A DNA stretch of 64,000 bases. Origin: Liolophura sinensis (taxonomy: Eukaryota; Mollusca; Polyplacophora; Chitonida; Chitonidae). Of this stretch, positions 21,804 through 43,706 are shown piece after piece. A program made the translations under genes and the position numbers. How positions within the stretch are numbered: position 1 is the stretch's first letter; every line of letters starts with the position of its first letter. The notes beneath the pieces were generated by a model. The model did not search any database, was not told the origin of the DNA, and was given only the letters and a program-made list of their open reading frames with translations. The stretch spans positions 15,733,717 through 15,797,716 of the forward strand of contig NC_088305.1 of assembly GCF_032854445.1 (NCBI RefSeq). Direction: 5' to 3'.

Positions 21804-23402
21804 TTAATTTTCGTTCAGTAGATCCCTTGCACGTGTTGGCAGCATTGCCTTTGCTCCTGGCTTTGGTCGCGTTGTTATCCGAAATTGGAAACCGCCTTTG
21901 CCTTCCAGTAAGTGGCGCTCGTGCTGCCAGCTGAATAGGGCGCCATCTGTCGTTTCCAGGTATGGGTTTATTTCAATGACCCAGAGTTTCTCGTTCGGTG
22001 TCCCTGAAAACGACACGATTACATATAGCATGGCATTACATAGTTCACGTTTCACCTACCATCGTTTAGAATAATTTTTTTCTTCGTTAGTATAGCTTTT
22101 CGTTTCGAACGTTGCCTCAATCTTAAAAGGATAATAATTTGATGTTGTAAACCTATAGGCGCATATATATATATATAGCAATTTACCGTTTGGGGCCTGG
22201 CAGCACAGTTCCTACAAAGAGATCGAATGCCAGCTAGATTATAACTCTCACGGCCACACATGTTTATGCCATGTTGCCATGATCGTTGCAAACAATTCAA
22301 TAATAGCTCACGGTGGCTTTGTAGAACAAGACGTTGGTACCTCTGTATATACTCCTAACCATACAGGTCCTTCCTTACCGCTAATAATACGATTCATGCC
22401 CGTAATCCCTGTGGATTATTGGTTCTTTGGATAAAATGTCAGCATTCGTTTAGTTGCATAAGTCATCCCAAAGATTTTACTTGTGCGTTTATTTACTTTT
22501 TAAGACCTACCATTCTGGGAAATGGCGAAGTCAATGATGAAGTTGCTTGAGAATGCCTCAGACATTAGACGTGTTCTGACTTCGGTTTCAAAGAACTTAA
22601 TAAGTTTTTGCTCAATGCCACCCTGCTGCTCAAGTAGCCGTTGAGAGAAGATCAAGTAGTTGTACTGTGAGAGAGCCACTAGATCATGATTGTACACAAA
22701 ACCCCGAAATTCCATGTCAACGTCGATGGGAACAAACTGTCGGATCACGAAATTCTCGTGGAATCTATCAGGAACCGCTAAGGCCAGAAGCATATCTTGA
22801 TAAATCCGTTCACTTCTCATGAACAAGTCCATCACTTCTTCGGCACTTTTGACCATCATGGCGTCAAAGCAAACTTGCAAAAGAGTGGTGAGTTTTGTGT
22901 TTTCTTTTGAACGGTCTTCTTCTGGAAAACTCGACAATCTTTGGCGATACAAATGTTCCAAACGTTCCTGAGCCAACGGACCATCTTTTGGACTTCGACT
23001 GGAGGTTTTGACAAAAACATAACCTTCTTTGACGTACTCATTCATTGCTATGGCTAACTCTGTGCGCATACCTTCCAAAATGACGTTCTCTTCCGGTAAC
23101 AATTTGTCCTCCCATGAAAGACGACAGATGCTTCTGTGGTCAAGATTTTTATAGATTCGTTCATAAACATTGACAAAAAGTCTAGCTTGCTCAATGGAGA
23201 TTGAACTGTAGCAAGTTGTAAAAGTCACATCCTTAAGTAGATCGAGCCACTTCTCTGTGTTCACATCTAAAACCTTGCCCTGATATTCATCTATATCTGC
23301 TTGTTTTATGAACCCCGCCATTTTAGGGCTCGAGAAATCCTTCATAGGCTCTGGGCTAGGTTTGAGTTTTTGCTTGAGCAATTGTTCTTTAAAGCTCGCC
23401 AT
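21804..23402 (-). CDS. CDC123/D123-family ATP-grasp protein, two exons
   Basis: Exon 1 is 23402-22511 and exon 2 is 22003-21804 (minus strand). The intron has a cagaatG|GTAGGT donor and gttttcag acceptor in phase 1. The joined product is 363 aa. Seen: VKTSSRSPKD at residues 131-140 matches the KxxWSAPRDA nucleotide-binding segment of CDC123. EFRGFVYNHDLVALSQYNYL (221-240) matches the FRCFV-KLIGISQRDY strand. FIIDFAISQ (288-296) and LWVIEINPYLETTDGALFSW (304-323) match the C-terminal D-x-N metal-binding and TDSLLFSW motifs. CDC123 proteins use this fold to help assemble translation factor eIF2. This protein differs enough from CDC123 itself (for example E-I-N instead of D-F-N) that I infer a related paralogue whose partner is unknown. 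The start ATG has a good context (aagATGG). A possible 5' UTR acceptor lies near 23464. Confidence 0.85.
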
Positions 23403-27174: not shown

Positions 27175-30100
27175 ATGGCCATTGAGCCTAGGGTTGTTGA
27201 CGTAACAATAGCAATGGCGGCGTACAGGGAACAACTTCGTGACACACCGAACGATATTCCGCCAAATAGTCGGTTATTTGTGATCGCCGGGAGAGGAATC
27301 AAGGAGGATGAGTACCGAGAATGTTTTTCCAAATATGGCCAGGTGGAAGACATTTGGATTGTGAAAGATCGACGCACAAATGAAGAAAAAGGTGTGCATG
27401 TATTTATTTTGCAACAACAACGGTGGGACAATCGGAAAAATTGCAGGTCGTCATTTATTGGGACTGGCAATGAAGGGGCTTCTGTTGTGGCAGTGTCAAG
27501 AAAATACAATGCCATTGAAATATATACAGCATATATATATATATATATTCCCTTTTGAAATGTTGAAGTTACAGCCAATTTTATTTGTTTGCAATATACA
27601 TGTAATTCGGTTATTTGCTTTTTATTTTGTTTATCTTGTTTAGGGGTCGGCCAAAATGACGGTCTGAGGGACGGTCTAGGCATTATTTTGCAGACGGCTC
27701 ATTCCAGCAATAATTTGACTATCCTAAGTAATGAGGTGGTTGGCATGAATGCAGCTCATGTTAGTTTGTGGTTTGCCTTGCTAAGAGCAAAGGTATACTT
27801 ACCACACATTACTCTGTCTAGATAAATTCAGCGTGTTATTTTTTAAATTCTGATATTCATCGTACCAGTAACACTGAGTCCATCCCCACAAACATGGTGC
27901 AGATTTCAAAGACTAGGGTCATATTTACGTGTTGATTTCCACATGCATTCTGACATCATGTTTACTGCTTAAATTTAGATGTTTGTTATTCTAGTTTTTG
28001 TCATGTGTCACTGTCATATATGTGATCTCTGCTTTGCATATTTCACAGGTCATACATTTCTGAAAGGTTTTATTTTGTTTCTTGTGAAATGCTAGGGATT
28101 CGAACTTCCATCAGATAGCGTGTCGGGCCCGTAGCCAGATTCTTGTATCGCTACACCACTCGAGTTGATGTGATAGCGGCTTTTAAACGTCTTTAAGACA
28201 GTGTGCGTGTGTCACATGCTTTTGTCACATGGACAACATCTGAAAAGGGTCTCCTCCATACTAGCCAGTTTGTAGAGAGGCAGGGAATGACTAGGTGTTA
28301 CACTGAATGCCAGAATTTTAAAATAGCACACTGTGCCCATCTAGATTTACTACTGGTAACTGCACACCACAAATAATCAGGACTTACCTTTGTTGTGAAC
28401 TTTGACAGTTATTGAGATGGGCGTTTGTCAGTGAGCTGACCATAGCATCACAATGCAGATCTCTCCTTTGTATAAAAATAAAAAATAAAAAAAAGCACTA
28501 GCATGATTTGTTGTAGTCTTCTTGCCGCTGGCTGATAGTTTAATATTTTTCTTTTAGTATTAATTTCCTCAAAATTCATATCTTTTCAATGGCAGAAATA
28601 AAGAAAATATCTACTGATGTACCTTATTTTTCCTATATGGTTGGGTGTAACCCGACAAAGAACTTTATTATAGATGGCCTGGACTGTTGGTTGTATTCTG
28701 ATGAATACAATACATAATAAACAACTTAAAACAGATATATAAGCAAAGAAATATGTATTTGATTTTTTAGGTATAACCTATGTGAAGTTTTCAAGGGCAT
28801 CAGAAGCAGCCCTAGCTATGGAGGAAGTCAATGGCCGAACCATAGGCAGCCATCCCAAACCTGTCAAGGTATTCTCCTCTAATTGACTGATAGATGTGGT
28901 AAAGATTGTACAACAGAGTATGGGGGCTCACAGTTGGGTAACATTTTTGGCTGCACATTGGTGTAATATGAGTAAAAATTGAATTGAATAATGATGTAAG
29001 TATCAGTGAACTGAAAAAAATTTATTTGCCATTTTCAGCAGAAGAACAAACTGTTAATGCAGTTGCTCTTAATGATTTTGTGAGGATTTTTTGTGTATAT
29101 CATATGTATTTAATTTATCACTGATCAAGGTGTCATTGTAGTACGGTGCCATGTTGAAAGTCACATTGCTATGTTGGTTACTGAATGAGTACAAGAAAGG
29201 TTTAGAAACTAATAATAATACAGGTGATGTGTTCAAAAATTGTACACTTTTCCATAAAAGCGTGGATCTTGGCAGAAGTGTAAATTATGTTTCCTGGAGA
29301 CTTTCAGATGTAGAGCAATCTCAGGTATGCTTTCAGTCATTTTATTTCCGCCATTGCCGAAAAAGACATTTTCTTAAATATCGTTGCTACTGAGCTGCCC
29401 AGTCCAGATTCTAGCAACCGTGTTTTTATCAATGTTGGGTCTCAATACACTGGTATTTACTGTGCGCACAGTAACACTGTGCCATGACATCTGCTGTGAG
29501 CAGAAACATAAGGGTGCTGCAAAGAGTAAGTTGATATTTGTCTTGTGGTTGAGTGCACAAAATACTGACTCCAGATGCTGAGACTGTTTTTCTGTCATAA
29601 TCTGTAGAAATGGGCTGTGGTGTAGTGATTACAGGCTTTTCTCATTAAAATAATGGTTCCACACGATGCCCACTGGGTTAGCCCTTTAACGTTGTCTCCT
29701 CTGTTGGTTAGTGTGCTAGCGCAGTGTAATGACCCAGGAGCCTCTTACGAATGCAGTCGCTGTGAGTTTAAGTCCAGCTCATGCTCTGCCTGGTTTCCTC
29801 CCACCATAATGCTGTCCGCTGTCGTATAAGTGAAGTATTCTTGAGTATGGCATAAAACACCAATCAAATAAGTAAATAAATGAACATTGGCTCCTAATAT
29901 ATTTGCTACAGGGACCCTTTAGTACAATTCTTTTCTGAGGCTTAATTTGCCACGAAAGTGTTGATGGGTATGCATGCTTCTTTAATGCATTCATGTAACT
30001 GAAAAAAAAATTCACGAAGATTGTCACATGTGTCTTCCAGGTGGGTGACAGAACAGCAGGACTTTATGGATCTTCATTGGATCAGAAATCAGATCCTTAA

Positions 30101-33100
30101 AATACAGTCTCTTGCTTGTGCACGTTGGTTTCGTCCTAAATACTGTTGACTTTTCTCTGCCTAACCAACTACGGTTTTTAAGCCATTTATTTCGTATCTA
30201 GTTTAAACAGGTTCTTTTTTTCCCTTGTGAAAGGGTTGCCCATGTTTTCCATTACATAGACCAATGATTTGACCTATTGATGCGGTGGTGTGTACGCTGT
30301 CATACTACTCAAGATTATCTATTGGTAGAACTTTGTTACCTCAAACTTTGCGTTCATGTTAAACCAACAGCACCACTAGCTCCCGCCTCTGTTGTCATCA
30401 CTAACAGTGCACAGGAAAAGTTATCTAGATACAGTATTCCAGAATAGAAACTGGAACTACGCCCATCCCTCGTGGCCCATGAAGCTTAAATCATAGCTTG
30501 TATGCTTTCTTTGTCTATATGTGAAACAGTACTGGAGGTTAATTGATGCACGTGTCTGGTATGAGCGTTATGGAACACTTTCAGGAAGGGTCCTGCAGAG
30601 TCCTGGGAGGTTGCTTAGATTCCAGCTGAAGCTTTCTCCCAGACACTGTCCTATAAGTGATCATCAGTGATCTGTGTAGCACCTTTCTCAGTTTTACACT
30701 GTATCTTGTGGTGTGAAGGGGTTGATCTGTTACATGGACGTGACATTAATAGCATCGATAAAGTCATCAAGTATATGCATTCTATTTTCCATTGAATTCA
30801 GCCGTCTTCCTATCTTAATGCCTCTTAGACAGCAATTCCATTTCCTTGTAATGGACCAAGACACTTCATGTGACATACATGGATGTCTTGTTGTGTTTGA
30901 AAAGGGTAAAGGTTTATGACAGACGATTCCCATCTGTGTTCCTCCTATTCTTTGATCAGTTTGGGTTTTTGATCCATGGGTTTTTCCCATCCAAAGAAAT
31001 TACCTGGAGGCACATGTGGAGCTGGGGTTGTGGTCTTTGTTATCCAGAGGTACTGTTATGAACATAGTAAGCTACCACAGAAATTTACTGAACAACTTTT
31101 TTTCCTTGCTTGTTATGATTCATGCAGGCACACTGTAACCCAAGGATGTAATGATTCATGCAGGCACACTTAACCCAAGGCTGTAATGATTGACATGGGC
31201 ACACTGAAACCCAGGGATGTAATGATTCACGCGGGCACTCAGGCACACTGTAACCCAAGGCTGTAATGATTCACGCGGGCACACTAACCCAGGGATGTAA
31301 TGAATTGCACGGGCACACTGAAACCCAGGGATGTAATAATTCACACAGGCACACTGAAACCCAGGGATGTAATGAATCATGCAGGCACACTGTAACCCAA
31401 GGATGTAATAAATCAGGCAGGCACACTGTAACCCAGGGATGTAATGAATCACGCAGGCACACTGAAACCCAAGGATGTAATGAATCACGCAGGCACACTG
31501 AAACCCAAGGATGTAATGATTTACACGGGCACACTGTAACCAAAGGATGTAATGATTCACATGGGCACACTGTAACCCAAGGATGTAATGAATCACGCAG
31601 GCACACTGTAACCCAAGGATGTAATGATTTACACGGGCACACTGTAACCAAAGGATGTAATGATTCACATGGGCACACTGTAACCCAAGGATGTAATGAA
31701 TCACGCAGGCACACTGTAACCCAAGGATGTAATGATTTACACGGGCACACTGTAACCAAAGGATGTAATGATTCACATGGGCACACTGTAACCCAAGGAT
31801 GTAATGAATCACGCAGGCACACTGTAACCCACGGATGTCATGATGTCCAACACCTTGTCACATGATATGGAAAACCAGAGTTTCTTGGCTTAATGTAAAT
31901 TGTTAGTCTTCTAGAGATTGGCAACACTTGGTGCTTATCAATTCTTAATAGCATAATTTGCTGGGAACTAGGAATTTTCAATGTATCTCTGTTGTAGCTG
32001 CTGCTGTGCAACAGTTACTGTGATGCTAATGGTTGATTTCTTCAGTGCACACAGTGGTTAGAGACATTAGCATGCATTTTACAGTGTCCAAGGTGTCTAC
32101 ATTTGTTAGCTTAGCCATCAAGACAGACATTGGTACTTCAAGTCCTATATTATACAACCTCTACAAATATATTGTAACTGGTTTTTCTAAAAGGGCAGCC
32201 TTAATTTGCATATTACAGAGTATTACATGTAAGAACATTTGGTTGGCGTTGTTCTAAATGGAATCCTAGTAAATATGGACCATCAAACCATGGGTGCACA
32301 GTTACCAAATCTCGTCCACATAAGGAAGTGAAGAAAATACATATTTGTATAATGGCAGCAACAAAATGGCTGCTGTTGTCGAAAGAGGTCATTTTTTGCA
32401 ATGGCTCTACATCTGAAAAATGGTCATCAGGTCTTAATCATGCAGTGTACCAAGTTTCATGCTATTATGATAAAATGGACAACTCCCTCATACTTCTTCA
32501 TATTTGACTATAACTGTTTTTTTCTGCAGGTAATTATTGCAAGTAACAGGAAAGATGGGAATGTGAGGGACCCGCGGGAAGAAGAGAAGCTTGTCAGGCT
32601 CTTTGTTGTTTGCCCCAAAAAGTTTTCAGAGGACGACTTGAAACAAGAGTTCAAAGTAATTATGTTTTGCTTTTGCAGGATATATTTTGATTTTTTCTGA
32701 GAATGATGGGTAGCAGTTGTTATTATTTTCTTGTGTATAAAGATTTTGCAAATATTGGCATGCTGTATTTCACCTAAATGTTGGAATTTAAAAATGCACT
32801 TTCAGAAGCACATGAAGATATTAAAATGATAATTTTAACGGCAACACTTAAGTTTTTCTTATTCAAACTATCAAAATACCCTGTAAGGCAGGTGATTCAA
32901 TAAGAATCAAGCAAAATTTGTCCCTTCAAAAATGCTCAACTTGAGTTAAAATGCGGTACTTAATATTATATGTTGATGACACTTTTGATATATTCTGAAT
33001 TTTTTTATTCTGTAGTTAAATCCTAATTAATTAAATAAATAGATAATCAAATTAATGTAAATGTGTTTGGCTATTTTTTCCACAGCAATATGGCGACATT

Positions 33101-36100
33101 GAATATACCCAGGTGGTAAGGGACAGAAGCTCTGGTGAGAACAAAGGATTCGGCTACGTCAAGTTCCATCGTCCTTACCACGCTGCTGTGGCTTTAGAAA
33201 GCTGTGACCCCTGTAAGGAACAGACATTTTTGTTCAATGGGTATTATTATTAAAAAATACTTATTCTTAAAAAATGCTCTGTCTTCAAAATAACCATACA
33301 ATGTGGCAATATTTCATTTAAATTTCTCCCACACCCATTGTTGTTGTTGTTCTTTTTTTATAAGAGCGAAGTCTTAGCTGTCTTGTGAAAGGTCAGTTTT
33401 TATTGCCATATTTCTCAGGTTTATATAATACTGTCAGATATGGCAAGGTCCACAATTTTTTTTTATCAAGAAAAAAAATAATGACTGTCAGATTGACTAC
33501 CAGTGTACATGTTTCCAGTGGCTGTTATGTTTTTTTTTTTTTCTGAGATACCCAGAACTAGGGATAATTCCTGTATATCTATCTATCTATTTATTTGAGT
33601 GTTGTTTTATGCTGTACTCTAGAATACTTCACTTATACAGTGGAAGCCCGCATTATGATAGGAGAAACCCATGACCATTTGCAGGTTGCTGCCAGACCTT
33701 CTCACGAATGGAATTCATGTACTGGTATAGGATAATTTTATGACATGTTGTGATACATGTATTTTGTAACTTTCACAGCATTTAAGCCCAAGTTTGCAGA
33801 ACCAAAGACGCGTAAATCCGACCGTGAGCGGGAAGAGAGGGATGATTACGACTTCAGATATGATAGGCACGAAAGAGGTGAGCGATATGACAAGGGAGGG
33901 AATTTTATGCAGTTAAGTCTCCGATTTGTTTATGTTGCACCATAGGGTAATTCAGGAGTGCAGGGTGGGGCTCTGTTGTTACTTGAGTGCTCAAGGTATT
34001 GTAATCTAGTCCGGTTTAGTGGATGAAATGAAACATGAAGATTTAAGAATGAAGGTATATGAGTGGCAAAAAAAAAATCTTATCTACATACCTCTCTTGT
34101 ATGTAGTCATAGGGTTGTTATTTTCAAAACCCGATTGACTTTAAAGGATTAGTGTCCAGATTCATTATTTATTCACAGTTAGCTACCCCTGTGTATATTG
34201 TTAAATTGAGTGTAAGAAATATTGAGAAAAGATTCATTAATCTGAGAAATGTGGCACTTAAAATCATTTGATAATGAGGCTGGTTTTATGCATTTTTTTC
34301 GCCAACAGTAGTCTCCCCAGAATTACGTCACAGAAATCTGTCCCTATTTGAGCCCAAGCATCCTTTGAGCACGTAATGTTAATCATGTAACCATCTGTGT
34401 TCAGCAAACCGGGTAATGCTAATCACGTAATCATCTGTGTTCAGCAAACGGGTAATGCTAATCACGTAACCATCTGTGTTCAGCAAACCGGGTAATGCTA
34501 ATCACGTAACCATCTGTGTTCAGCAAACCGGGTAATGCTAATCACGTAATCATCTGTGTTCAGCAAACCGGGTAATGCTAATCACGTAACCATCTGTGTT
34601 CAGCAAACCGGGTAATGCTAATCACGTAACCATCTGTGTTCAGCAAACCGGGTAATGCTAATCACGTAACCATCTGTGTTCAGCAAACCGGGTAATGCTA
34701 ATCACGTAACCATCTGTGTTCAGCAAACCGGGTAATGCTAATCATGTAACCATCTGTGTTCAGCGAACGTTATGGTCAGCCCAACAAAATCACATCAATC
34801 TTGCTGCCTCATTAAATCCGTGTGTTGACCTTCATAACCCAGTAGAAGCACAGAGCCTTGTCTGCTCAGCATATTGAATGCAAATTAAATATTGTCGTAT
34901 TTAAGATGTATGTATTCTTTGCTGTCGAAAAACTACAGTGTACACTATAAAATACTTATATAACTGTAAAAAGCTGGCACATGCATCGGTTTTATATAGG
35001 GAGCTGCCAGCTGTTTGAAAATAAGTTACTGAATCTACTATATGAATTTGCTATTTGTGAATTAAATTAGTTCAGTGATTGACAGGTGTGGGCCATGTAA
35101 TCATCATTTAGCGCTTAAATTTTGTAGTAACAACCTCAAAACAATATTTTTATTTTAAATCTACATGGTCACAAAATCCTCAAGAGTTCTCGCTTTTATG
35201 GTGGCATAAGCCATTACGTTCTTCTATGTTCTTCAAAAAGGATAATTTTTGTCTCAGAAAAGTTTGTCCGGATCATATAATTGGCATGATTTGACAAGCT
35301 GTCAGTGACAGTCACCAACCCAATGATGCCAAGGAAACTTTGGTGGATAGAAAATATATCCTTTTACAGATACATTGTTCCAGCATACACATAACTGCAT
35401 TATTTCACTTCATACCTGCCTGATTCATTGCCACATAAGGGATATTATTATGTCAAATGAGGACATTTTATGATAACTAGTAATGATTTTGTTTTTTAGG
35501 ATTCCTGGTTTATCTTCAGACTGGAGTAGCTCTTTAAGTTTCGAGTGATTGTGTCTTCTTATTTTTCTAACCGATATATAAACTGTTTAATTCGTCATCA
35601 GACTCACGATCAGGGTTTGGAGGCATGCAGTCATCTAAGAGGATGTTCCCGGACACATCAGTGTATGATGATTACCCCATGATGGATGATAGACGCGCGC
35701 CACAGTACGGCTTGGGCCACATGCCCATGGTGGCTCACCAGATGCCCGCCCCAGTGCAGAGTGGTAAGATTTAATTATTTGTCTATGTATTTAAGGGGGC
35801 CTCCTTGTCTTAGTTGGTTAGCGCGCTAGTGCAGCGTAATGACCCAGGAGTCTCTCACCAATGCGTTCGCTGTGAGTTCAAGTTCATCTCATGCTGGCTT
35901 CCTCTCCGGACGTATGTGGGAAGGTCTTTCAGCAAGCTGCGAAAGGTCGAGGGTTTCCCCCAGGCTCTTCCCAGTTTTCACCCACTATAATGCTGGCTGC
36001 TGACGTGTAAGTGAAATATTCTTGAGTACGGCATAAAACACCAATCAGATAAATAAAATAAATAAATTTATTTGAGTGGTGCTTTGCGCCATACTCAAGG

Positions 36101-39100
36101 ATATTTCTCTTATACAATGTTGACCAGCAATATTGAGATACAAAACCAGACAGTCCTATCTGGTCTTATGTAGGAAGATCTGCCAGCAACCTGCGGATGG
36201 TCGTGGGATTCCCAAAGATGCTGCCTAGTTTCTACCCACCATAATGCTGGCCGCTGTGGTATAAGTGAAATATTCCTGAGTACGGCGTAAAACACCCAAA
36301 AAAATAAATAAATAATTAAAACCAGACAGAGCCTGGAAGAAAATCATGACTATCTGCAGGTTCAGGTTTGTACATTGTAAGAGGGTCTCATTATGCTAAC
36401 AGTATATATACGATAAATCCTGTAAAGTTTCACCCATAAATCTCATTTTTAGGAGAAAATAGATCTTTCCAGTGGCATGTCTTACCTCACAAAGAAACCT
36501 GAAAACACCTTTCGAAGATAAACAGAAGTCTTGAAATCAGACAAAATGTGCAGCTTAGACATTGACAAAACTTTAGGACATTTACCGTAATCGTCATTAT
36601 TTGAGGATGCAATAATCAACATTTTTTTTTTTTGTTTCGGAACATTTTCTTCCCGTACTGTGTCCGGTGCTTTGCTCTGGGCACTCCCGTTTCCTCTGTC
36701 AGTAAATCAGATGGCCACGTTAACATTTTAGAGTATGAGGTTAGGCACCAATGATGTAAATAAATGCAATGATTAATGTATTTGAGAAGTAATGAAACAT
36801 GTTGTCCTGTGTTGTTGTTCAGGAGGAATGGGCCCAGCAGAGATGCTACAGCAGTATCCTAACTCCGGTTGTCAGAGATTACACATCACTGCTCCGCTGG
36901 GCATGACCCAGAGCTACCTGAGCAGGTTGTTCAACCTCATCCCCGGCCTGGAGTACTGCGATCTTAATGAGCAAACAGGTGTTGCTTATGCGCGGTACCA
37001 GACCTCACAGTGCGCTGCATACGCCCACGATAAACTGGATGGTTTTGAGTATCCTATTGGCAGCCGTCTGATCGTCAGATACGCAGATTCGCAGCCTCCA
37101 CCCGATCTAGCCTCTTCATCCATGTCAGGGTAGGTCACTCTCTTATGTCAGGGTAGGTAACTCTCAGATGTCAGGGAAGGTTGCCCTCTGATGCCAGGGA
37201 AGGTTGCCCTCTGATGCCAGGGTTGGTAACCCTCTGATGTCAGGGAAGGTAACCCTGTGATGTCATGGTAGGTAACCCAGTGATATCAGAGTAGGTTACT
37301 CTCAGATGTCAGAGTAGGTAACCCTGTGATGTCAGGGTAGGTAACCCGGTGATGTCAGAGTAGGTTAATCTCGGATATCAGAGTACGTAACCCTCTGATG
37401 TCAGGATAGGTAACTCTCTGATGTCAGGGTAGTTAACTCTTTGATGTCAGAGTAAGTAGCCCTCTTATGTCAGGGTAAGTAACCCTCTGATGTCAGGGTA
37501 GGTCACTCTCTGATGTCAGAGTAGGTAACCCTTTCTTGGCAGCAGATCGCAAAATGTAAAAAATCATACAACAGCAAATTTGTCTTAGATATATGGTGTT
37601 TTTTACTAATGCAGTTTCGCATTCAGTATAGGGTTATGTCCCTTGTTTTCTGTCAGTAAGATTTGTGGGAATGATTAAAGAAAGCACAACACAGCTGCAT
37701 AGCCAAAGTGCATGTAAGCTATTTTTTTGACTGAAATAAACAAAATAAAGACAGTTTAGTGAACTGATTGATTATCAGAAGTCAGAATAGCTGTTAATCA
37801 GAAAACTGTATATTTTAGTAATATATCTGGAGGATTAGTAATATATCTGGAGGATTAGAACATTAGTATAGTTTCTTGTAGTTGCATTGTAATAATGTGT
37901 GAACTGTTCTGATCTTTCCTTAGGTATGGCTCTATGGGGGGACAGTCCACATCACCTATGTCTGCTGGGGGTGGGACTCTCCAAAGGGTAAGGCACAAAT
38001 ACACAGCATCATTATGTCCTATTGTTCTAACCTTGGTGGCCATGACGTCATAGCTAAGCTTGCCATGTGACATTTCCAAGACATAAATTACGAATTTTTA
38101 CACATCTGCCAAATGGGTACTACACAGAGAATAGGGACGTCAACTGCATATATCGGACTGTATATGCAGCGAATTTTTTCAAGCGACCCAGGACTGTTGT
38201 CAAAGAGTGACATCATAGTGTTCAGTGGGGTTGTTCCAACCGCAGGGATGATAGGATGGCACGGCTGAGAAAACAAGCTATATGACGTCATCAGCATGAA
38301 GCCGTGTAATCTGTATGTAGGTCAACATGTATGTAGGTCAACATGTATGTAGGTCAACATGTATGTAGGTCAACATGTATGTAGGTCAACATATTTGTAG
38401 GTCAACTTGTTAAACTTGGGAGCTGATTACACTCGTTGACGGACCTATGTACACTTAGCAACTACGAAGTATAAACAACGAAAAACAACAGCAATTCTAC
38501 GTACACATGTTAATTTATTTATTTTAATTTTCCATCGAAATTTTGATGATCATCTCCAGTCCAAATTGTCCAGTCTTTATCACTTCATGTGGCAAATAAA
38601 ATTTTCCAGCGCCCACATAAAAACCCTACCTCTTTTCCCGATGTTTGCATTGCACGCTGGGCGCTTGATTATCTGGTGACAAGGGCAAGTAAGTTTGACA
38701 GAGGCATTACTTATGGATAACAACCCCTGGATTTATTGTGTTGGTGACATTTCGATGTAGGTTCTTACATCGTTATCAAACCATATGAAAGAAGTCATAT
38801 GGTTTGATAACGATGTAAGAACCTACATCAAAACGTCACCAACACAATAAATCCAGGAGTTGTTATCCATAAGTAATGCCTCTGTCAATCTATACCATCC
38901 CAATTCCTAAATGCCTCTGAAAGAAGGGCAAGTAAGTGTTCGGAAATACCAAAGCCTGCAGGCCGACATCCTCCCTACATGTAGACAGTTTACGAAGTGC
39001 ATTCATTGCTGCTGACTGTCATAGCTTCGTGTATAGTGTTTGTCACCTTGTTAGCTAAATATCCCACTCATGCATGATTGCCGTCTTTCAGTCTCTTAGT

Positions 39101-42100
39101 TTTATTTCCGTATTTTAACACTGATTGAAGCCTTTGCACAAAGACTTACTTTAGGGAATGTCTCAAACAATTAGCGTGGACATATCATGTGTGAAATGCG
39201 GTGTTTTTATTGGTTCTCGATGTGTGGACATTGTGGCTGTTTAAACTAGACTCTTCCATGGAGCGATCTACACATGAGAAGTATAATCCAAATAAAGGGG
39301 TGAATCGAAGGTATCTGAAAATGGAAAGGTAGTAAAAACTTAAAATTAGGGTAAAATATTTGTGAACGGGTGATGTGTTAGAATGGAAATAAAAGCTTCA
39401 TTCACTGTGTATATGCTGTGATAACTGCAGTGAAAAAGGAAGCGCATATTGTCTGTGTGACTAGTTACGTAACAGTTGCAGTACATTTCATTGGCTGAAA
39501 GTGTGGGAACGATATTAATATGCGTGATGTAAATATGTAACGAAATTGATAAAACTTATTTTTTACTACCGTGTTGAAGAAATGGCGACGGTTTTGCATT
39601 TTGACTGTTTTGTCAGTATTGATGGTAGAGGAAAGGCAGAGAAAACTAATATATATAAAGAAAGGGGAGAAAAGTATTTCATAGTCAACACTGACGGCAT
39701 TGACATTCAAGTTGACTTATCTGCACAGCAGCTCCAGGTCATACCGGCAACAACAAATGTATCACACTCAGATATTCGGCCACAAGAATATTCAGTCTAT
39801 CAATAAATTCAGCCATATGCTGTAAAACACTGCTCAGCATAGAAGTATTTCTGAGCTTCTCAATTCAACTGTTTCTGCAAAACATCTTTATGTCTTGTTG
39901 TTCTAACCTTTGTGGCCATGACATCATTTCTAAGCTTACCCTGTGACATCTCTTGAACAGAAATAACAAAACATCTTTATGTCCTGTTGTTCTAACCTTC
40001 GTGGCCATGACGTCATTTCTAAGCTTACCCTGTGACATCTCTTGGACACAAATTACAAAACATCTTTATGTCCTGTTGTTCTAACCTTCGTGGCCATGAC
40101 GTCATTTCTAAGCTTGCCCTGTGACAGCTCTTCGACACAAATTACAAAACATCTTTATCTTGTGTTGTTCTAACCTTTGTGGCCATGATGTCATTTCTAA
40201 GCTTACCCTGTGGCATTTCTTTGATTTGGATTACATATATTATAGCTAAAGAATATTCACAAAGTTCACATTTTCACAAGTAGACATTTGCTGAACACCA
40301 CTGCAAACTAGTTCTAAACCTTGCACCAGGTGAGGCATAGCTCATGTCATACCTGAGCAGAGGCGGTGCCAGTGTTAGCATCAGTGTTCAATTACAGGAA
40401 AAGTGATGTTAAAGTAAATGTTGGGGATGTAAAGTAAATGTTAAGGATGTAAAGTAAATGTTAAGGATGTAAAGTAAATGTAAATGTTGGGGATGTAAAG
40501 TAAATGTTGGGGATGTAAAGTAAGGGATTTAAAGTAAATGTTGAGGATGTAAAGTAATGGATGTAAAGTAAATGTTGGGGATGTAAAGTAAATGTTGGAG
40601 ATGTAAAGTAAATGTTGGGGATGTAAAATGAGGGATGTAAAGTAAATGTTGGGGATGTAAAATGAGGGATGTAAAGTAAATGTTGGGGATGGGATATTGA
40701 GCTGAAGATTTACATATATGACATTTTCCATCATTGATGCTCTGCGTGCATATTAATTATTGTAAATTACCAATTTCACAACTTAAGTACATTATGTATT
40801 GAGCTGAAGTTTTGCAGTCATCTGTCTCTAGATGAGCTCAAACCTAAATTAGTCCTCTACCATTATTGACAAAAATTGCCAGTTTGTGTTCCATTGTTGA
40901 CATTGTCATACATGTGCATATAGTCTGATGGCTCTGCTGGGTAGTGAATGCGTTATGTAAGTATTTGTTTGGATTCATTTTTGTCTGAATAACATGAATA
41001 GAACCAAACAGTCCACAAATACTCTGAACAATTAGTTTTCCACTTTCATTTACGCAATGAGAAAACTTCAATTGAAAAAAAACAATTGTCCTTATTAGCC
41101 AAATATGGACTGAATTGTAGGCTGCCTCGTTACTGGAAAGGGCTGGCATTGACCCCGGGGAGGTGCTCGCCTGTGGGGTTGAGCGTGTGCGTTACTGTAA
41201 CTTGGTCCTGCCTATTCCCCAGCCTCTGAGGTCAGAGGGCACAGAGTGTAAGGTCAGGCTGTTTGTGGTCTGTCAACCGCTGCCCATCCCCGAGAAGATC
41301 CTGAGAGATGCCTTCTGCCGCTTCGGGGACCTCATTGATGTCTTCCTTCTGTCAGGTGAGTGTAAGAAGCACCTTCTGTCAGGTGAGTGTAAGAAGCACC
41401 TTCTGTCAGGTGAGTGTAAGAAGCACCTTCTGTCAGGTGAGTGTAAGAAGCACCTTCTGTCAGGTGAGTGTAAGAAGCACCTTCTGTCAGGTGAGTGTAA
41501 GCAGCACCTTCTATTAGGTGAGTGTAAAAAGCAGGCAAGGAACAGCGGCGCAGAAGAAAACTATTGTGACGCTATGTCTAAAACCAAAATGTTTAGGTTG
41601 TGAGTGAAGTTGTACATTTGCCTGATTCTATTGCTCTTAGAAAGGTGTTTTGAGATTCGTTAGTTAGGTAATATCCTAATCTACAACACAAAATGTGAGT
41701 TTCAACACCAAACATCATATCTTGTGGCATTTATTGGTTCTAAAAAATACACTTTATGGGGCAAAATGTTAGGTCTTTTGCCATATTTGTGCATAAAAAT
41801 AGGACAAGGTTTACCTTCTCAGAGGTGAGAAAAAAAGCTATCAAATTGTCTTTATTGGAAAGCTGTGTGAGCGGACATTTTATCAGTGGGTTATCGTGAT
41901 GGGCCTGAGCTCTTCAATACCACAGATAAATCCTTGAGCCCCATGGCCTCCTAAGAATTCCAGAGTTAAAATTAGGCTATGGAGTTGCCCAGCACATCAG
42001 AAAAAAATAGCTGTGGCTGTTTCGGTTTGTTTCCGCACCTCTTCATCATATCTCAGGTTATATTATGTGTTGTCTGTGCTAACACAAAATTGCCAGTTGT

Positions 42101-42518
42101 GACTTTTAAGATATTTGCGTAACCTTTGCGTTTTTCTCAATCAGGAATATGAATATGATTATTTATAGCACTTTTGATCAGTATAATACAGATATTGTTA
42201 TCATCATTATCACTTGATGAATGAATTATTCCCACTCCTAGAGAACGTGATGCTGATGAAACGTGCAGAATTTCAAAATTACTTTGTTGTGATTAATATT
42301 TGCTTCTGGTTGTAGGTCGAAATTACGGCTACGCAAAATATGCAGATAAGTCTGCAGCTGAAAAAGCCATGTCTACTCTCCATGGCCAAACTCTGGCGGG
42401 AAACCGACTGAAAGTGTTGGAGGCGGACCCACCGAAGGAAGATCACCGTAGAGATGATAACCATAGAGATGAACATCACCGCGAAGAACAGACACCCAAC
42501 AAGAAACAGCGAACTTGA
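27175..42518 (+). CDS. RNA-binding protein RBM45 (four RRMs), ten coding exons
   Basis: Exons: 27175-27391, 28771-28868, 32530-32655, 33086-33212, 33779-33877, 35602-35763, 36823-37129, 37924-37987, 41121-41355, 42316-42518. All junctions are GT-AG and phases agree, giving 545 aa (human RBM45 is about 476). RRM1 is residues 33-105 (RLFVIA; KGITYVKF), RRM2 128-190 plus (RLFVVC; KGFGYVKF), RRM3 about 294-366 (RLHITAP; LIPGLEYCDLN) and RRM4 about 446-515 (RLFVVC; RNYGYAKY). The C-terminus KKQRT resembles the human nuclear-localisation tail KRQRTY. RBM45 is known as a nuclear RNA-binding protein of neural development that can aggregate in neurodegeneration; the mollusc role is inferred. Both ATGs (27175 and 27214) have good contexts. 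Linkers (residues 200-290) are longer than in vertebrates. The stop lies 9 nt before a strong donor (ctgGTAAGA), implying an intron in the 3' UTR. Confidence 0.93.
28092..28175 (-). mobile_element. Possible tRNA-derived SINE head (third family)
   Basis: Within RBM45 intron 1, gggattcgaacttccatc resembles the reverse of a tRNA B box and tacaccactcgagttg the reverse of an A box. No tail or target duplication was found. Confidence 0.35.
29702..29883 (+). mobile_element. SINE family 1 with internal deletion
   Basis: Head ggttagtgtgctagcgcagt through ccagctcatgc is joined directly to tctgcctggtttcctcccac, skipping roughly 75 bp of the body. Tail caatcaaataagtaaataaa. Lies in RBM45 intron 2. Confidence 0.85.
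31107..31845. repeat. 36-bp minisatellite with 108-bp higher-order repeat (RBM45 intron 2)
   Basis: Monomer: gatgtaatgaatcacgcagg plus cacactgtaacccaag. From about 31500 three monomer types (atttacacgggc, attcacatgggc, aatcacgcaggc) alternate as a 108-bp trimer repeated three times. Since 36 is divisible by three, long open frames appear in several frames on both strands (199, 218 and 183 aa). These are by-products. Confidence 0.93.
32767..32952 (+). mobile_element. MITE-like element family B (RBM45 intron 3)
   Basis: Starts atttcacctaaatgttgg and ends gagttaaaat. It shares the blocks attaaaatgataattttaa and gaatcaagcaaaat with the better-preserved copy at 42639-42844. Non-coding. Confidence 0.5.
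33580..33705 (-). mobile_element. SINE family 1 fragment (minus), RBM45 intron 4
   Basis: Reverse tail (tctatttatttgagtgttgt) and 3' body (gaatacttcacttatacag, acccatgaccatttgcaggt). The head is missing. Confidence 0.75.
34365..34765. repeat. Minisatellite, 40-bp unit, ten copies (RBM45 intron 5)
   Basis: Units of gggtaatgctaatcacgtaa and ccatctgtgttcagcaaacc are nearly identical over 400 bp. Sequence alternation of 'taatcat' and 'taaccat' marks variant units. Confidence 0.93.
35796..36060 (+). mobile_element. SINE family 1 (plus), RBM45 intron 6
   Basis: Near full length: head ggcctccttgtcttagttgg, body ctcatgctggcttcctctcc, tail caccaatcagataaataaaa. It abuts a second, reverse-oriented SINE at its 3' end. 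Confidence 0.88.
36061..36365 (-). mobile_element. SINE family 1 (minus) interrupted by another SINE
   Basis: Outer reverse copy at 36061-36153 (atttatttgagtggtgcttt, actcaaggatatttctctta) resumes at 36330-36365 (gcctggaagaaaatcatgac). The gap is filled by the truncated plus copy at 36154-36317. Confidence 0.8.
36154..36317 (+). mobile_element. 5'-truncated SINE family 1 nested in another SINE
   Basis: Starts within the body (tcttatgtaggaagatctgc) and ends caaaaaaataaataaataat. A perfect 12-bp duplication of the host SINE, AAAACCAGACAG, lies at 36142-36153 and 36318-36329. Confidence 0.88.
37123..37536 (+). repeat. 23-bp minisatellite that repeats the exon 7 donor (RBM45 intron 7)
   Basis: The end of exon 7 (atgtcagg) and the donor (gtaggt) form the first unit of a tandem array, tgtcagggtaggtaactctc plus tga, of about 18 copies. 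Many later units keep CAG-GGTAGGT and could serve as decoy donors. The unit is not a multiple of three, and the exonic frame meets TAG immediately after the true donor, so use of a downstream site would end the protein before RRM4. Confidence 0.88.
38006..38092 (+). repeat. Single diverged copy of the 89-bp repeat, with a CRE octamer
   Basis: Matches the units of the 39881-40236 array (tgttctaaccttggtggcca, taagcttgccatgtgacat). Contains TGACGTCA at 38043-38050. Confidence 0.75.
38311..38410. repeat. 16-bp minisatellite (RBM45 intron 8)
   Basis: About six copies of gtatgtaggtcaacat. Confidence 0.9.
38695..38888. repeat. Near-perfect palindrome, 94-bp arms, 6-bp spacer
   Basis: Left arm 38695-38788 and right arm 38795-38888 are complementary except for three positions, around spacer aagaag. 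Each arm contains the short hairpin gatgtaggttcttacatc. Its motif with aacgtcaccaacacaataaa resembles 3' ends of some retroelements such as Penelope-like elements; this assignment is tentative. Confidence 0.9.
39456..39880 (+). repeat. 425-bp duplication, copy 1, with a 74-aa open frame
   Basis: Almost identical to 43281-43706. Inside, ATG at 39582 opens a 74-codon frame (MATVLHFDCFVSIDGRGKAE at the start, RPQEYSVYQ at the end), whose TAA is part of an AATAAA signal (39802-39807). Upstream lie an inverted CCAAT-type attggctga and the palindrome gttacgtaac. I do not recognise the product. It sits in RBM45 intron 8. Confidence 0.85.
39582..39806 (+). CDS. Hypothetical 74-aa ORF, copy 1
   Basis: Good start context (gaagaaATGG). 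No signal peptide, membrane segment or known motif; charged middle (GRGKAEKTNIYKERGEKYF). Compared with copy 2, only three residues differ by my reading (H/C, N/S, G/V). The duplication is too recent for that to prove coding constraint. It may be a small gene, a retro-derived fragment or an accidental frame. Confidence 0.3.
   Translation: MATVLHFDCFVSIDGRGKAEKTNIYKERGEKYFIVNTDGIDIQVDLSAQQLQVIPATTNVSHSDIRPQEYSVYQ
39881..40236 (+). repeat. Tandem repeat, 89-bp unit, four copies, with CRE octamers
   Basis: Units begin aacatctttatgtcctgttg and contain gtggccatgacgtcatttct. The middle two units keep a perfect TGACGTCA (40008-40015 and 40097-40104); the outer two have one change. The array starts directly at the right edge of the 425-bp duplication. 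Confidence 0.9.
40400..40690. repeat. Minisatellite, about 20-bp unit (RBM45 intron 8)
   Basis: About 14 irregular units of ggatgtaaagtaaatgttgg, some shortened to ggatgtaaagta. Confidence 0.88.
41346..41534 (+). repeat. 27-bp minisatellite of in-frame 5' splice sites (RBM45 exon 9/intron 9)
   Basis: Unit: cttctgtcag|gtgagtgtaa plus gaagcac. The first cag|GTGAGT at 41355/41356 is the canonical exon 9 end. Further copies of the same donor start at 41383, 41410, 41437, 41464, 41491 and, with attag before it, 41518. All lie in the same phase, and the exon frame stays open through every unit, encoding GECKKHLLS per repeat. Use of donor n would add 9n residues at position 479, in the loop between strands 2 and 3 of RRM4, just before RNP1 RNYGYAKY. 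Confidence 0.95.
41625..41790 (+). repeat. Dispersed repeat, copy in RBM45 intron 9
   Basis: Blocks tctattgctcttagaaaggt and gtgagtttcaacaccaaaca correspond to 62038-62160 (tctattgatcttagaaaggt, gtcagtttcaacaccaaaag). Unclassified family. Confidence 0.6.
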
Positions 42519-43280: not shown

Positions 43281-43706
43281 TGTGACTAGTTACGTAACAG
43301 TTGCAGTACATTTCATTGGCTGAAAGTGTTGGGAACGATATTAATACGCGTGATGTAAATATGTAACGAAATTGATGGAACTTTTTTTTTACTACCGTGT
43401 TGAAGAAATGGCGACGGTTTTGTGTTTTGACTGTTTTGTCAGTATTGATGGTAGAGGAAAGGCAGAGAAAACTAATATATATAAAGAAAGGGGAGAAAAG
43501 TATTTCATAGTCAGCACTGACGTCATTGACATTCAAGTTGACTTATCTGCACAGCAGCTCCAGGTCATACCGGCAACAACAAATGTATCACACTCAGATA
43601 TTCGGCCACAAGAATATTCAGTCTATCAATAAATTCAGCCATATGCTGTAAAACACTGCTCAGCATAGAAGTATTTCTTAGCTTCTCAATTCAACTGTTT
43701 CTGCAA
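43281..43706 (+). repeat. 425-bp duplication, copy 2
   Basis: Starts tgtgactagttacgtaacag and ends caattcaactgtttctgcaa, like copy 1 at 39456-39880, at roughly 97-98 percent identity by eye. Carries the same open frame (ATG 43408 to TAA 43632) and the same overlap of TAA with AATAAA. Confidence 0.85.
43408..43632 (+). CDS. Hypothetical 74-aa ORF, copy 2
   Basis: MATVLCFDCFVSIDGRGKAE at the start; otherwise as copy 1. It is followed at 43807-44040 by another unsupported frame (MANNISVRKNHQLPVSDC start). The two together might be part of the parent locus of the duplication, but nothing confirms this. Confidence 0.3.
   Translation: MATVLCFDCFVSIDGRGKAEKTNIYKERGEKYFIVSTDVIDIQVDLSAQQLQVIPATTNVSHSDIRPQEYSVYQ

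What the first reader, a model, noticed from the sequence alone, without database searches (positions are those of the whole stretch)
41346..41534. RBM45 exon 9 ends in a minisatellite of seven identical in-frame 5' splice sites
The exon-intron boundary itself has been tandemly copied: six extra 27-bp units each carry GTGAGT in the same phase, and the frame is open across all of them. Seven donors could compete, giving isoforms with 0-6 copies of GECKKHLLS placed in the beta2-beta3 loop of RRM4, next to RNP1. Copy number is likely to vary between individuals, so this would be a length-variable, splice-controlled tuner of an RNA-binding surface. I know of tandem donors a few bases apart, but not of a satellite made of donors.
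Basis: partly seen in the sequence, partly recalled or inferred. Interest (0 to 1): 0.88.

Follow-up and report, generated by a model that had tools for sequence, protein, structure and literature searches.

The report
Repeated splice donors ending chiton exons
In a chiton's RBM45 gene the signal that ends an exon has been copied seven times in a row, and the same kind of repeat sits at exon ends of several other genes in this animal; it is probably a by-product of repeat-prone DNA with the first signal doing the work, and it resembles structures already reported in amphioxus and in a human gene.

Summary
The array is real: seven 27-bp units (41345-41533), each with AG|GTGAGT, starting in the last 11 bases of RBM45 coding exon 9. 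The genome is the chiton Liolophura sinensis. Its annotated protein matches the window over ten exons and uses donor 1, so it has no GECKKHLLS copy. (1) Exon 7 ends in a second donor array (23 bp x 18); any later GT donor there gives a stop. (2) Genome-wide, triple AGGTGAGT gives 906 hits against 272 for the reversed control. Of 17 distinct arrays listed on contig C1, 6 begin at the end of a homology-supported coding exon. (3) The kind is in print: amphioxus 'mirage' minisatellites and the human CBS exon 13-intron 13 VNTR. Over eight exon-end arrays, later-donor use shifts the frame or meets a stop in five. So the first donor probably wins as a rule, and the open frame in exon 9 is luck, not a selected tuner. 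No RNA reads were available; minor use of later donors remains possible. The wider pattern, 5' splice sites as recurrent seeds of minisatellites in a mollusc, is the interesting part.

The parts
41121..41355 (+). RBM45 coding exon 9 (part of RRM4 up to DVFLLS+G); its last 11 bases are unit 1 of the array
   Evidence: exact codon-by-codon mapping of P0001 with GT-AG introns
41345..41533 (+). 27-bp minisatellite, 7.0 copies; unit = 11 exon bases + 16 intron bases
41354..41361 (+). donor 1, AG|GTGAGT, last exon base 41355, U1 duplex -14.1 kcal/mol; the one used in the annotated protein
41381..41388 (+). donor 2 (last exon base 41382), -14.1
41408..41415 (+). donor 3 (41409), -14.1
41435..41442 (+). 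donor 4 (41436), -14.1
41462..41469 (+). donor 5 (41463), -14.1
41489..41496 (+). donor 6 (41490), -14.1
41516..41523 (+). donor 7 (41517), TAG|GTGAGT, -12.5
42316..42518 (+). RBM45 coding exon 10 (acceptor partner) to stop codon
36823..37129 (+). RBM45 coding exon 7 (RRM3); its last 8 bases are unit 1 of a second donor array
37122..37532 (+). second donor array, 23 bp x 17.9 copies; GT kept at the donor position in 14 of 18 units; each of the 13 later GT donors gives a stop after residue 366
27214..42518 (+). RBM45 coding region, 10 exons, 532 aa, equal to L. sinensis P0001

Best explanation
A 'mirage' minisatellite: a short tandem duplication that straddled the exon 9 / intron 9 boundary and then expanded, copying the 5' splice site with it. 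Shown: the array begins inside the exon, every unit carries a full donor, a second array of the same build but other sequence begins at the exon 7 donor, and the same build recurs at coding-exon ends of other genes in this genome. Inferred: duplications across a donor survive because the authentic, exon-bound first donor keeps working. The downstream copies become intron and behave as silent or rarely used decoys, and the array grows and shrinks like any minisatellite. Selection does not hold the extra copies for the GECKKHLLS peptide.
For: Array anatomy. Annotated L. sinensis protein uses donor 1 of both RBM45 arrays. Second array at the exon 7 donor; 2 of 7 arrays in the gene span begin at donors, against about 0.0018 under random intronic placement (test chosen after seeing the data). 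Of the other 7 donors and 9 acceptors none shows a convincing repeat of its own boundary (lowest 0.021, exon 3 donor). Whole genome: 388+518 hits for AGGTGAGT x3 against 128+144 for the reversed control. 6 of 17 distinct arrays on C1 start at homology-supported coding-exon ends: ankyrin, a PDB 'Helicase-like protein' (Mot1/BTAF1 by recall), alpha-L-fucosidase, Fe-hydrogenase-like, 7tm_1 receptor, SPT3 homologue; in five the called array overlaps the exon end, in the receptor it is called from 26 bp after the donor, with a repeat-like exon end. Later-donor use shifts frame or meets a stop in 5 of 8. Amphioxus mirages are reported not to disturb splicing (PMC3087553, passages).
Against: No RNA reads were examined, so donor 1 dominance rests on one gene model. 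All seven donors pair strongly with U1 and some later array-2 donors pair better than the first (up to -11.6 against -9.7), which leaves dominance of the first donor unexplained; predicted RNA folding does not single out donor 1. 11 of 17 inspected arrays were not shown to start at an exon. Hit counts are overlapping hits, not arrays, and the listing covers part of C1 only. In the 144 kb around RBM45 strong donors in array units are not in clear excess over shuffled units (2 of 41 at -9 or better, shuffles 1.2 on average, at most 3; at -11 or better 2 against 0.2, at most 2).
Confidence: 0.78

Rival explanations
1. Length-variable splice tuner: the seven donors compete and give functional RBM45 isoforms with 0-6 nine-residue inserts in the RRM4 beta2-beta3 loop.
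For: All seven donors are strong, 27 is a multiple of three and no stop arises, and the site is a loop.
Against: Annotated protein has no insert and no isoform label; no insert in 133 aligned homologues; 5 of 8 exon-end arrays would break the protein, so an open frame is not a rule; units 1-5 are identical in DNA, which points to recent expansion rather than a long-kept peptide.
Confidence: 0.1
2. The extra donors have an RNA-level role, e.g. spare U1 sites that make exon 9 recognition robust or guard the intron against premature polyadenylation; copies need not be used for splicing.
For: Seven strong U1 sites in 189 bases; none of the 4 substitutions in array 1 falls in AG|GTGAGT.
Against: No test of function; in array 2 the donor GT is lost in 4 of 18 units; arrays at several unrelated genes fit a mutational bias more simply.
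Confidence: 0.08
3. Assembly error: the true locus has one donor, or another copy number.
For: Tandem arrays are where copy number goes wrong.
Against: Assembly made with hifiasm from PacBio HiFi reads averaging 8,347 bp (PMC11068029, passages), far longer than 189 bp (inference); unit 6 and 7 variants make the array non-uniform; same build at other loci. Coverage was 14x, and no reads were seen here.
Confidence: 0.03
4. The RBM45 array is an offshoot of a 27-bp satellite (contig C2, 17.885-17.974 Mb) that shares GTGAGTGTAAGRAGCA.
For: Same period and 69-77% identity at 12 places.
Against: Unit 1 of the RBM45 array is conserved coding sequence (DVYLLxGRNYGYAKYA in the homologue consensus) and the two C2 loci opened have no AGGTGAGT; with many minisatellites in the genome a chance match is plausible.
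Confidence: 0.04

Closest known systems
'Mirage' minisatellites of amphioxus Adh3 and globin genes BflGb6 and BflGb9 (PMC3087553, passages seen; the original Adh paper PMC117041 is not held)
   Same: Minisatellite-like tandem duplications spanning an exon-intron boundary, many units with AG/GT, several genes of one genome, reported not to interfere with regular splicing.
   Different: Amphioxus examples occur at both exon ends; units there 10-72 bp (Adh3) or 150-160 bp. Length and somatic instability reported there, not testable here. Here a mollusc, donor side only (acceptors outside RBM45 were not searched), two arrays in one gene, and a motif enrichment across the whole genome.
Human CBS 31-bp VNTR, c.1444_1467+7(16_21), exon 13-intron 13 (PMC2630376 and PMC1395315, passages)
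   Same: By its notation the unit is 24 exon bases + 7 intron bases, so each copy carries the donor; 16-21 copies.
   Different: 31 bp is not a multiple of three; polymorphism is documented there. Reduced CBS activity is known to me from the title of Lievers 2001 in reference lists; its splicing results are recalled, the paper is not held.
Intron gain by tandem duplication of an AGGT-containing segment (potato RdRp, PMC4974935, listing and start of abstract only; discussed for mirages in PMC3087553)
   Same: Each unit holds AG|GT, the raw material of that model.
   Different: No new intron is seen here; the intron after LLSG is old (open frames P0129 and P0130 leave homology at the same residue).
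Tandem alternative donors a few bases apart (recalled)
   Same: Several donors for one acceptor.
   Different: Copies here are 27 bp apart and arose by array expansion.

Membership tests
Mirage minisatellite (exon-intron boundary repeat) | Tandem repeat spanning an exon-intron boundary | tested here: met
   11 exon + 16 intron bases per unit at exon 9; 8 + 15 at exon 7
Mirage minisatellite (exon-intron boundary repeat) | Units carry AG/GT splice signals | tested here: met
   7 of 7 units in array 1; GT at donor position in 14 of 18 units in array 2
Mirage minisatellite (exon-intron boundary repeat) | Recurs at several genes of the genome | tested here: met
   6 of 17 inspected AGGTGAGT arrays on C1 at homology-supported exon ends, plus two in RBM45
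Mirage minisatellite (exon-intron boundary repeat) | Regular splicing undisturbed | tested here: inconclusive
   annotated protein uses donor 1 at both RBM45 arrays; no RNA reads
Mirage minisatellite (exon-intron boundary repeat) | Inner units homogenised, edge units divergent | tested here: inconclusive
   units 1-5 identical, 6 and 7 divergent, but the exon-side edge is not divergent
Mirage minisatellite (exon-intron boundary repeat) | Length differs between haplotypes or cells | not testable with these tools
   one haploid assembly only
CBS-type donor VNTR | Copy number polymorphism in the population | not testable with these tools
   no reads or second individual
Tandem alternative donors (a few bases apart) | Donors separated by a few bases | tested here: not met
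   spacing 27 bp
Recursive (zero-length exon) splice sites | Strong acceptor fused to donor, used stepwise | not tested
   each of units 1-6 reads CCTTCTGTCAG|GTGAGT, so AG|GT is present, but the pyrimidine run is short; no lariat or junction data

The most novel reading that the evidence does not exclude
In this chiton, 5' splice sites are recurrent birthplaces of minisatellites, in dozens of genes or more. The genome would then hold a natural series of exons followed by a few to over forty repeat units with near-identical donors, in which the spliceosome as a rule picks the first, exon-bound one even when later ones pair equally well or better with U1.
Probability: 0.55. Interest if true: 0.7.

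Novelty: new member of a known kind. Interest (0 to 1): 0.52.

Why it matters
Exon-boundary minisatellites are known to me from amphioxus and one human gene; finding them as a recurrent feature in a mollusc suggests that donors can seed minisatellites in distant animal lineages. Such arrays are ready-made tests of how one donor is chosen among many equal ones, and they supply the AG|GT duplications that tandem-duplication models of intron gain need. Public RNA-seq of five tissues exists for this species, so the main question can be answered at once.

Tried and rejected
RNA structure as the reason for donor 1 use: each extra donor can pair with CACCU just upstream, donor 1 less so, but opening energies over the contexts tried do not single out donor 1. 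Rejected as an explanation.

Repeats at the other RBM45 splice sites: no convincing degenerate copies at 7 other donors and 9 acceptors; the exon 3 donor is lowest at 0.021 in 18 tests in all.

Donor-rich units as a general property of minisatellites here: of 41 arrays in 144 kb only the two RBM45 ones reach -9 kcal/mol, but shuffled units reach it 1.2 times on average (at most 3), so this sample shows no clear excess; units over 120 bp were not scored.

The 12 weaker matches to the array lie on C2; the two loci opened are a 27-bp satellite without AGGTGAGT.

Fold search of the RBM45 model against PDB: the 50 rows listed are led by RBM45 RRM1-2 and otherwise RRM proteins or complexes holding them; PDB entries 8wq3 and 8wq5, named RNA-binding protein 45, match residues 415-521.

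Arrays on C1 with no exon shown: C1:4275462, 4536027, 4657856, 6950333, 13102028, 38360061, 46380878, 46388555, 49738429, 49776747, 51876031 (11 of 17). Of these, 6950333 and 49738429 have exon-like open frames without a Pfam or PDB match; 49776747 is an inverted copy of 49738429; the start of 4536027 was not reached; the extra open-frame look at 4275462 failed because its motif was not found. 13102028 and 38360061 were judged from the printed sequence and open frames only, and 4657856 and 4275462.

A second pattern search (AGGTAAGT x3) was asked repeatedly and never answered, so that donor sequence is untested.

Full report
What is there. The window holds RBM45 in ten coding exons. The protein P0001, named by its source 'RNA-binding protein 45-like [Liolophura sinensis]', maps onto the window codon by codon with GT-AG introns. 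The window lies on a contig of 32,819,725 bases in a genome of 609,464,459 bases and 632 contigs (contig length). That contig length is also printed beside P0001, and the published assembly has 609.5 Mb and 632 scaffolds (PMC11068029, passages; species name corrected to L. sinensis in PMC12441733, whole short text). So this is a chiton.

The array. Coding exon 9 ends at 41355. A 27-bp repeat of seven copies runs from 41345 to 41533. Each unit is 11 bases of exon end plus 16 bases of intron start, so each carries the 5' splice site. All seven GTGAGT are intact. U1 pairing is -14.1 kcal/mol for six and -12.5 for the seventh; the other eight annotated donors of the gene score -3.2 to -9.7 (U1 5' end from recall). 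Joining exon 10 to each donor gives open proteins of 532, 541, 550, 559, 568, 577 and 586 residues. The insertion point lies between two predicted strands of RRM4.

Exon 7 of the same gene ends at 37129 inside a second minisatellite, 37122-37532, 23 bp, about 18 units, with TCAGG|GTAGGT at its head. Here each of the 13 later GT donors gives a stop after residue 366. Several later donors pair better with U1 than the first. Yet the annotated protein uses the first. This is an internal control, at the level of a gene model: first-donor use is compatible with strong competitors.

A whole-genome search for three AGGTGAGT 16-45 bases apart gave 388 forward and 518 reverse hits; the built-in control, the same pattern read backwards, gave 128 and 144. 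These are overlapping hits and long arrays weigh heavily. The rows listed cover contig C1 up to about 51.9 Mb and fall, by my grouping, into 17 distinct arrays, two of which are copies of one another. I looked at all 17 (loci L017-L057). In 6 of 17 the array begins at the end of an exon whose homology runs up to, or within two residues of, the first donor: ankyrin repeats (Ank_2 2.8e-11), a protein matching PDB 6g7e 'Helicase-like protein' (3.8e-11, aligned to the last residue), alpha-L-fucosidase (PDB 7pls 2.6e-11, to the last residue), an Fe-only-hydrogenase-like protein (Fe_hyd_lg_C 1.8e-12), a rhodopsin-type receptor (7tm_1 8e-25) and an SPT3 homologue (PDB 8h7g 1.7e-6, to the last residue). 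The names Mot1/BTAF1 and CIAO3/NARFL for two of these are my recall. In five of the six the called array overlaps the exon end. In the receptor it is called from 26 bases after the donor, and the exon end resembles a later unit over about 19 bases by a lenient measure. In the fucosidase the exon share of the unit is only about 3 bases. The other 11 were not shown to start at an exon and may be ordinary arrays.

A nearer sample is less telling. Of 41 arrays in the 144 kb around RBM45 only its own two carry a consensus donor at -9 kcal/mol or better, but shuffled units reach that 1.2 times on average; at -11 it is 2 against 0.2 (at most 2 in 20 shuffles).

Is frame preserved as a rule? No. Over the eight exon-end arrays, the next matching donor stays in frame and open in three (RBM45 exon 9, the 6g7e-like protein, fucosidase) and shifts the frame or meets a stop in five (RBM45 exon 7, ankyrin, Fe-hydrogenase-like, receptor, SPT3). 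For the fucosidase, receptor and SPT3 loci the script took the best-matching later copy, not the adjacent one. An open frame in exon 9 is therefore within what chance gives.

Other evidence. In an alignment of 133 proteins (120 listed of 359 hits, and 13), 131 have the same 12-residue segment at LLSG|RNYGYAKY and none is longer; some are fragments, so the alignment is forced there. Open frames P0128-P0130, apparently read-through from exon 9 into the intron in other molluscs, show no repeated unit (that they are genomic is inference). P0001 carries no isoform label and stands for one sequence, a weak hint that the annotation found one coding isoform. Random placement of the seven arrays of the gene span in its introns, allowing 12 bases of intrusion, gives two or more at donors with frequency about 0.0018, a test chosen after seeing the data.

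Closest known. Tandem repeats spanning exon-intron boundaries were called 'mirages' in amphioxus Adh3 and found in two globin genes; the authors report many units with AG/GT, no disturbance of regular splicing, length instability, and a model of intron gain (PMC3087553, passages). The human CBS 31-bp VNTR, c.1444_1467+7(16_21), has by its notation 24 exon and 7 intron bases per unit (PMC2630376, passages; exon 13-intron 13 in PMC1395315, passages). So a satellite made of donors is not new. A search for minisatellites at splice sites in molluscs found nothing relevant (two papers, one read by passages, the other without the term in its main text); other literature searches are. The library holds open-licence papers only.

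Judgement. What remains unexplained is why the first donor should win against equal or stronger copies, and whether donors cause the arrays or merely tolerate them.

Noticed in passing
C2:17885627-17887153 and 17973207-17974763 (L002-L008): A large 27-bp satellite, in both orientations, with GTGAGTGTAAGGAGCA in its unit; 69-77% like the RBM45 array; the two loci opened hold no AGGTGAGT.
   Followed up: partly
window 1-64000 and L009-L016: The region is dense in minisatellites: 41 non-overlapping arrays covering 20,238 of 144,000 bases.
   Followed up: partly
window 22509-23402 (-) and 21807-22037 (-): Two-exon CDC123/D123-like gene; exon 1 is 100% equal to L. sinensis P0134 and exon 2 equal from residue 298 on; its donor (ATG|GTAGGT) has no array called at it.
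   Followed up: partly
window 39528-39806 and 43354-43632: Two near-identical open frames (VEEMATVL...FDCFVSIDGRGKAEKTNIYKERGEKYFIV), one in RBM45 intron 8 and one after the gene; the second, the only one tested, has no Pfam match. Possibly a dispersed element.
   Followed up: no
window 38702-38881: Long imperfect inverted repeat seen by eye in the sequence printed, like a short hairpin transposon.
   Followed up: no
C1:49738429 (L054) and C1:49776747 (L055): An exon-like stretch with its 26-bp donor array is present twice, in opposite orientation, 38 kb apart.
   Followed up: partly
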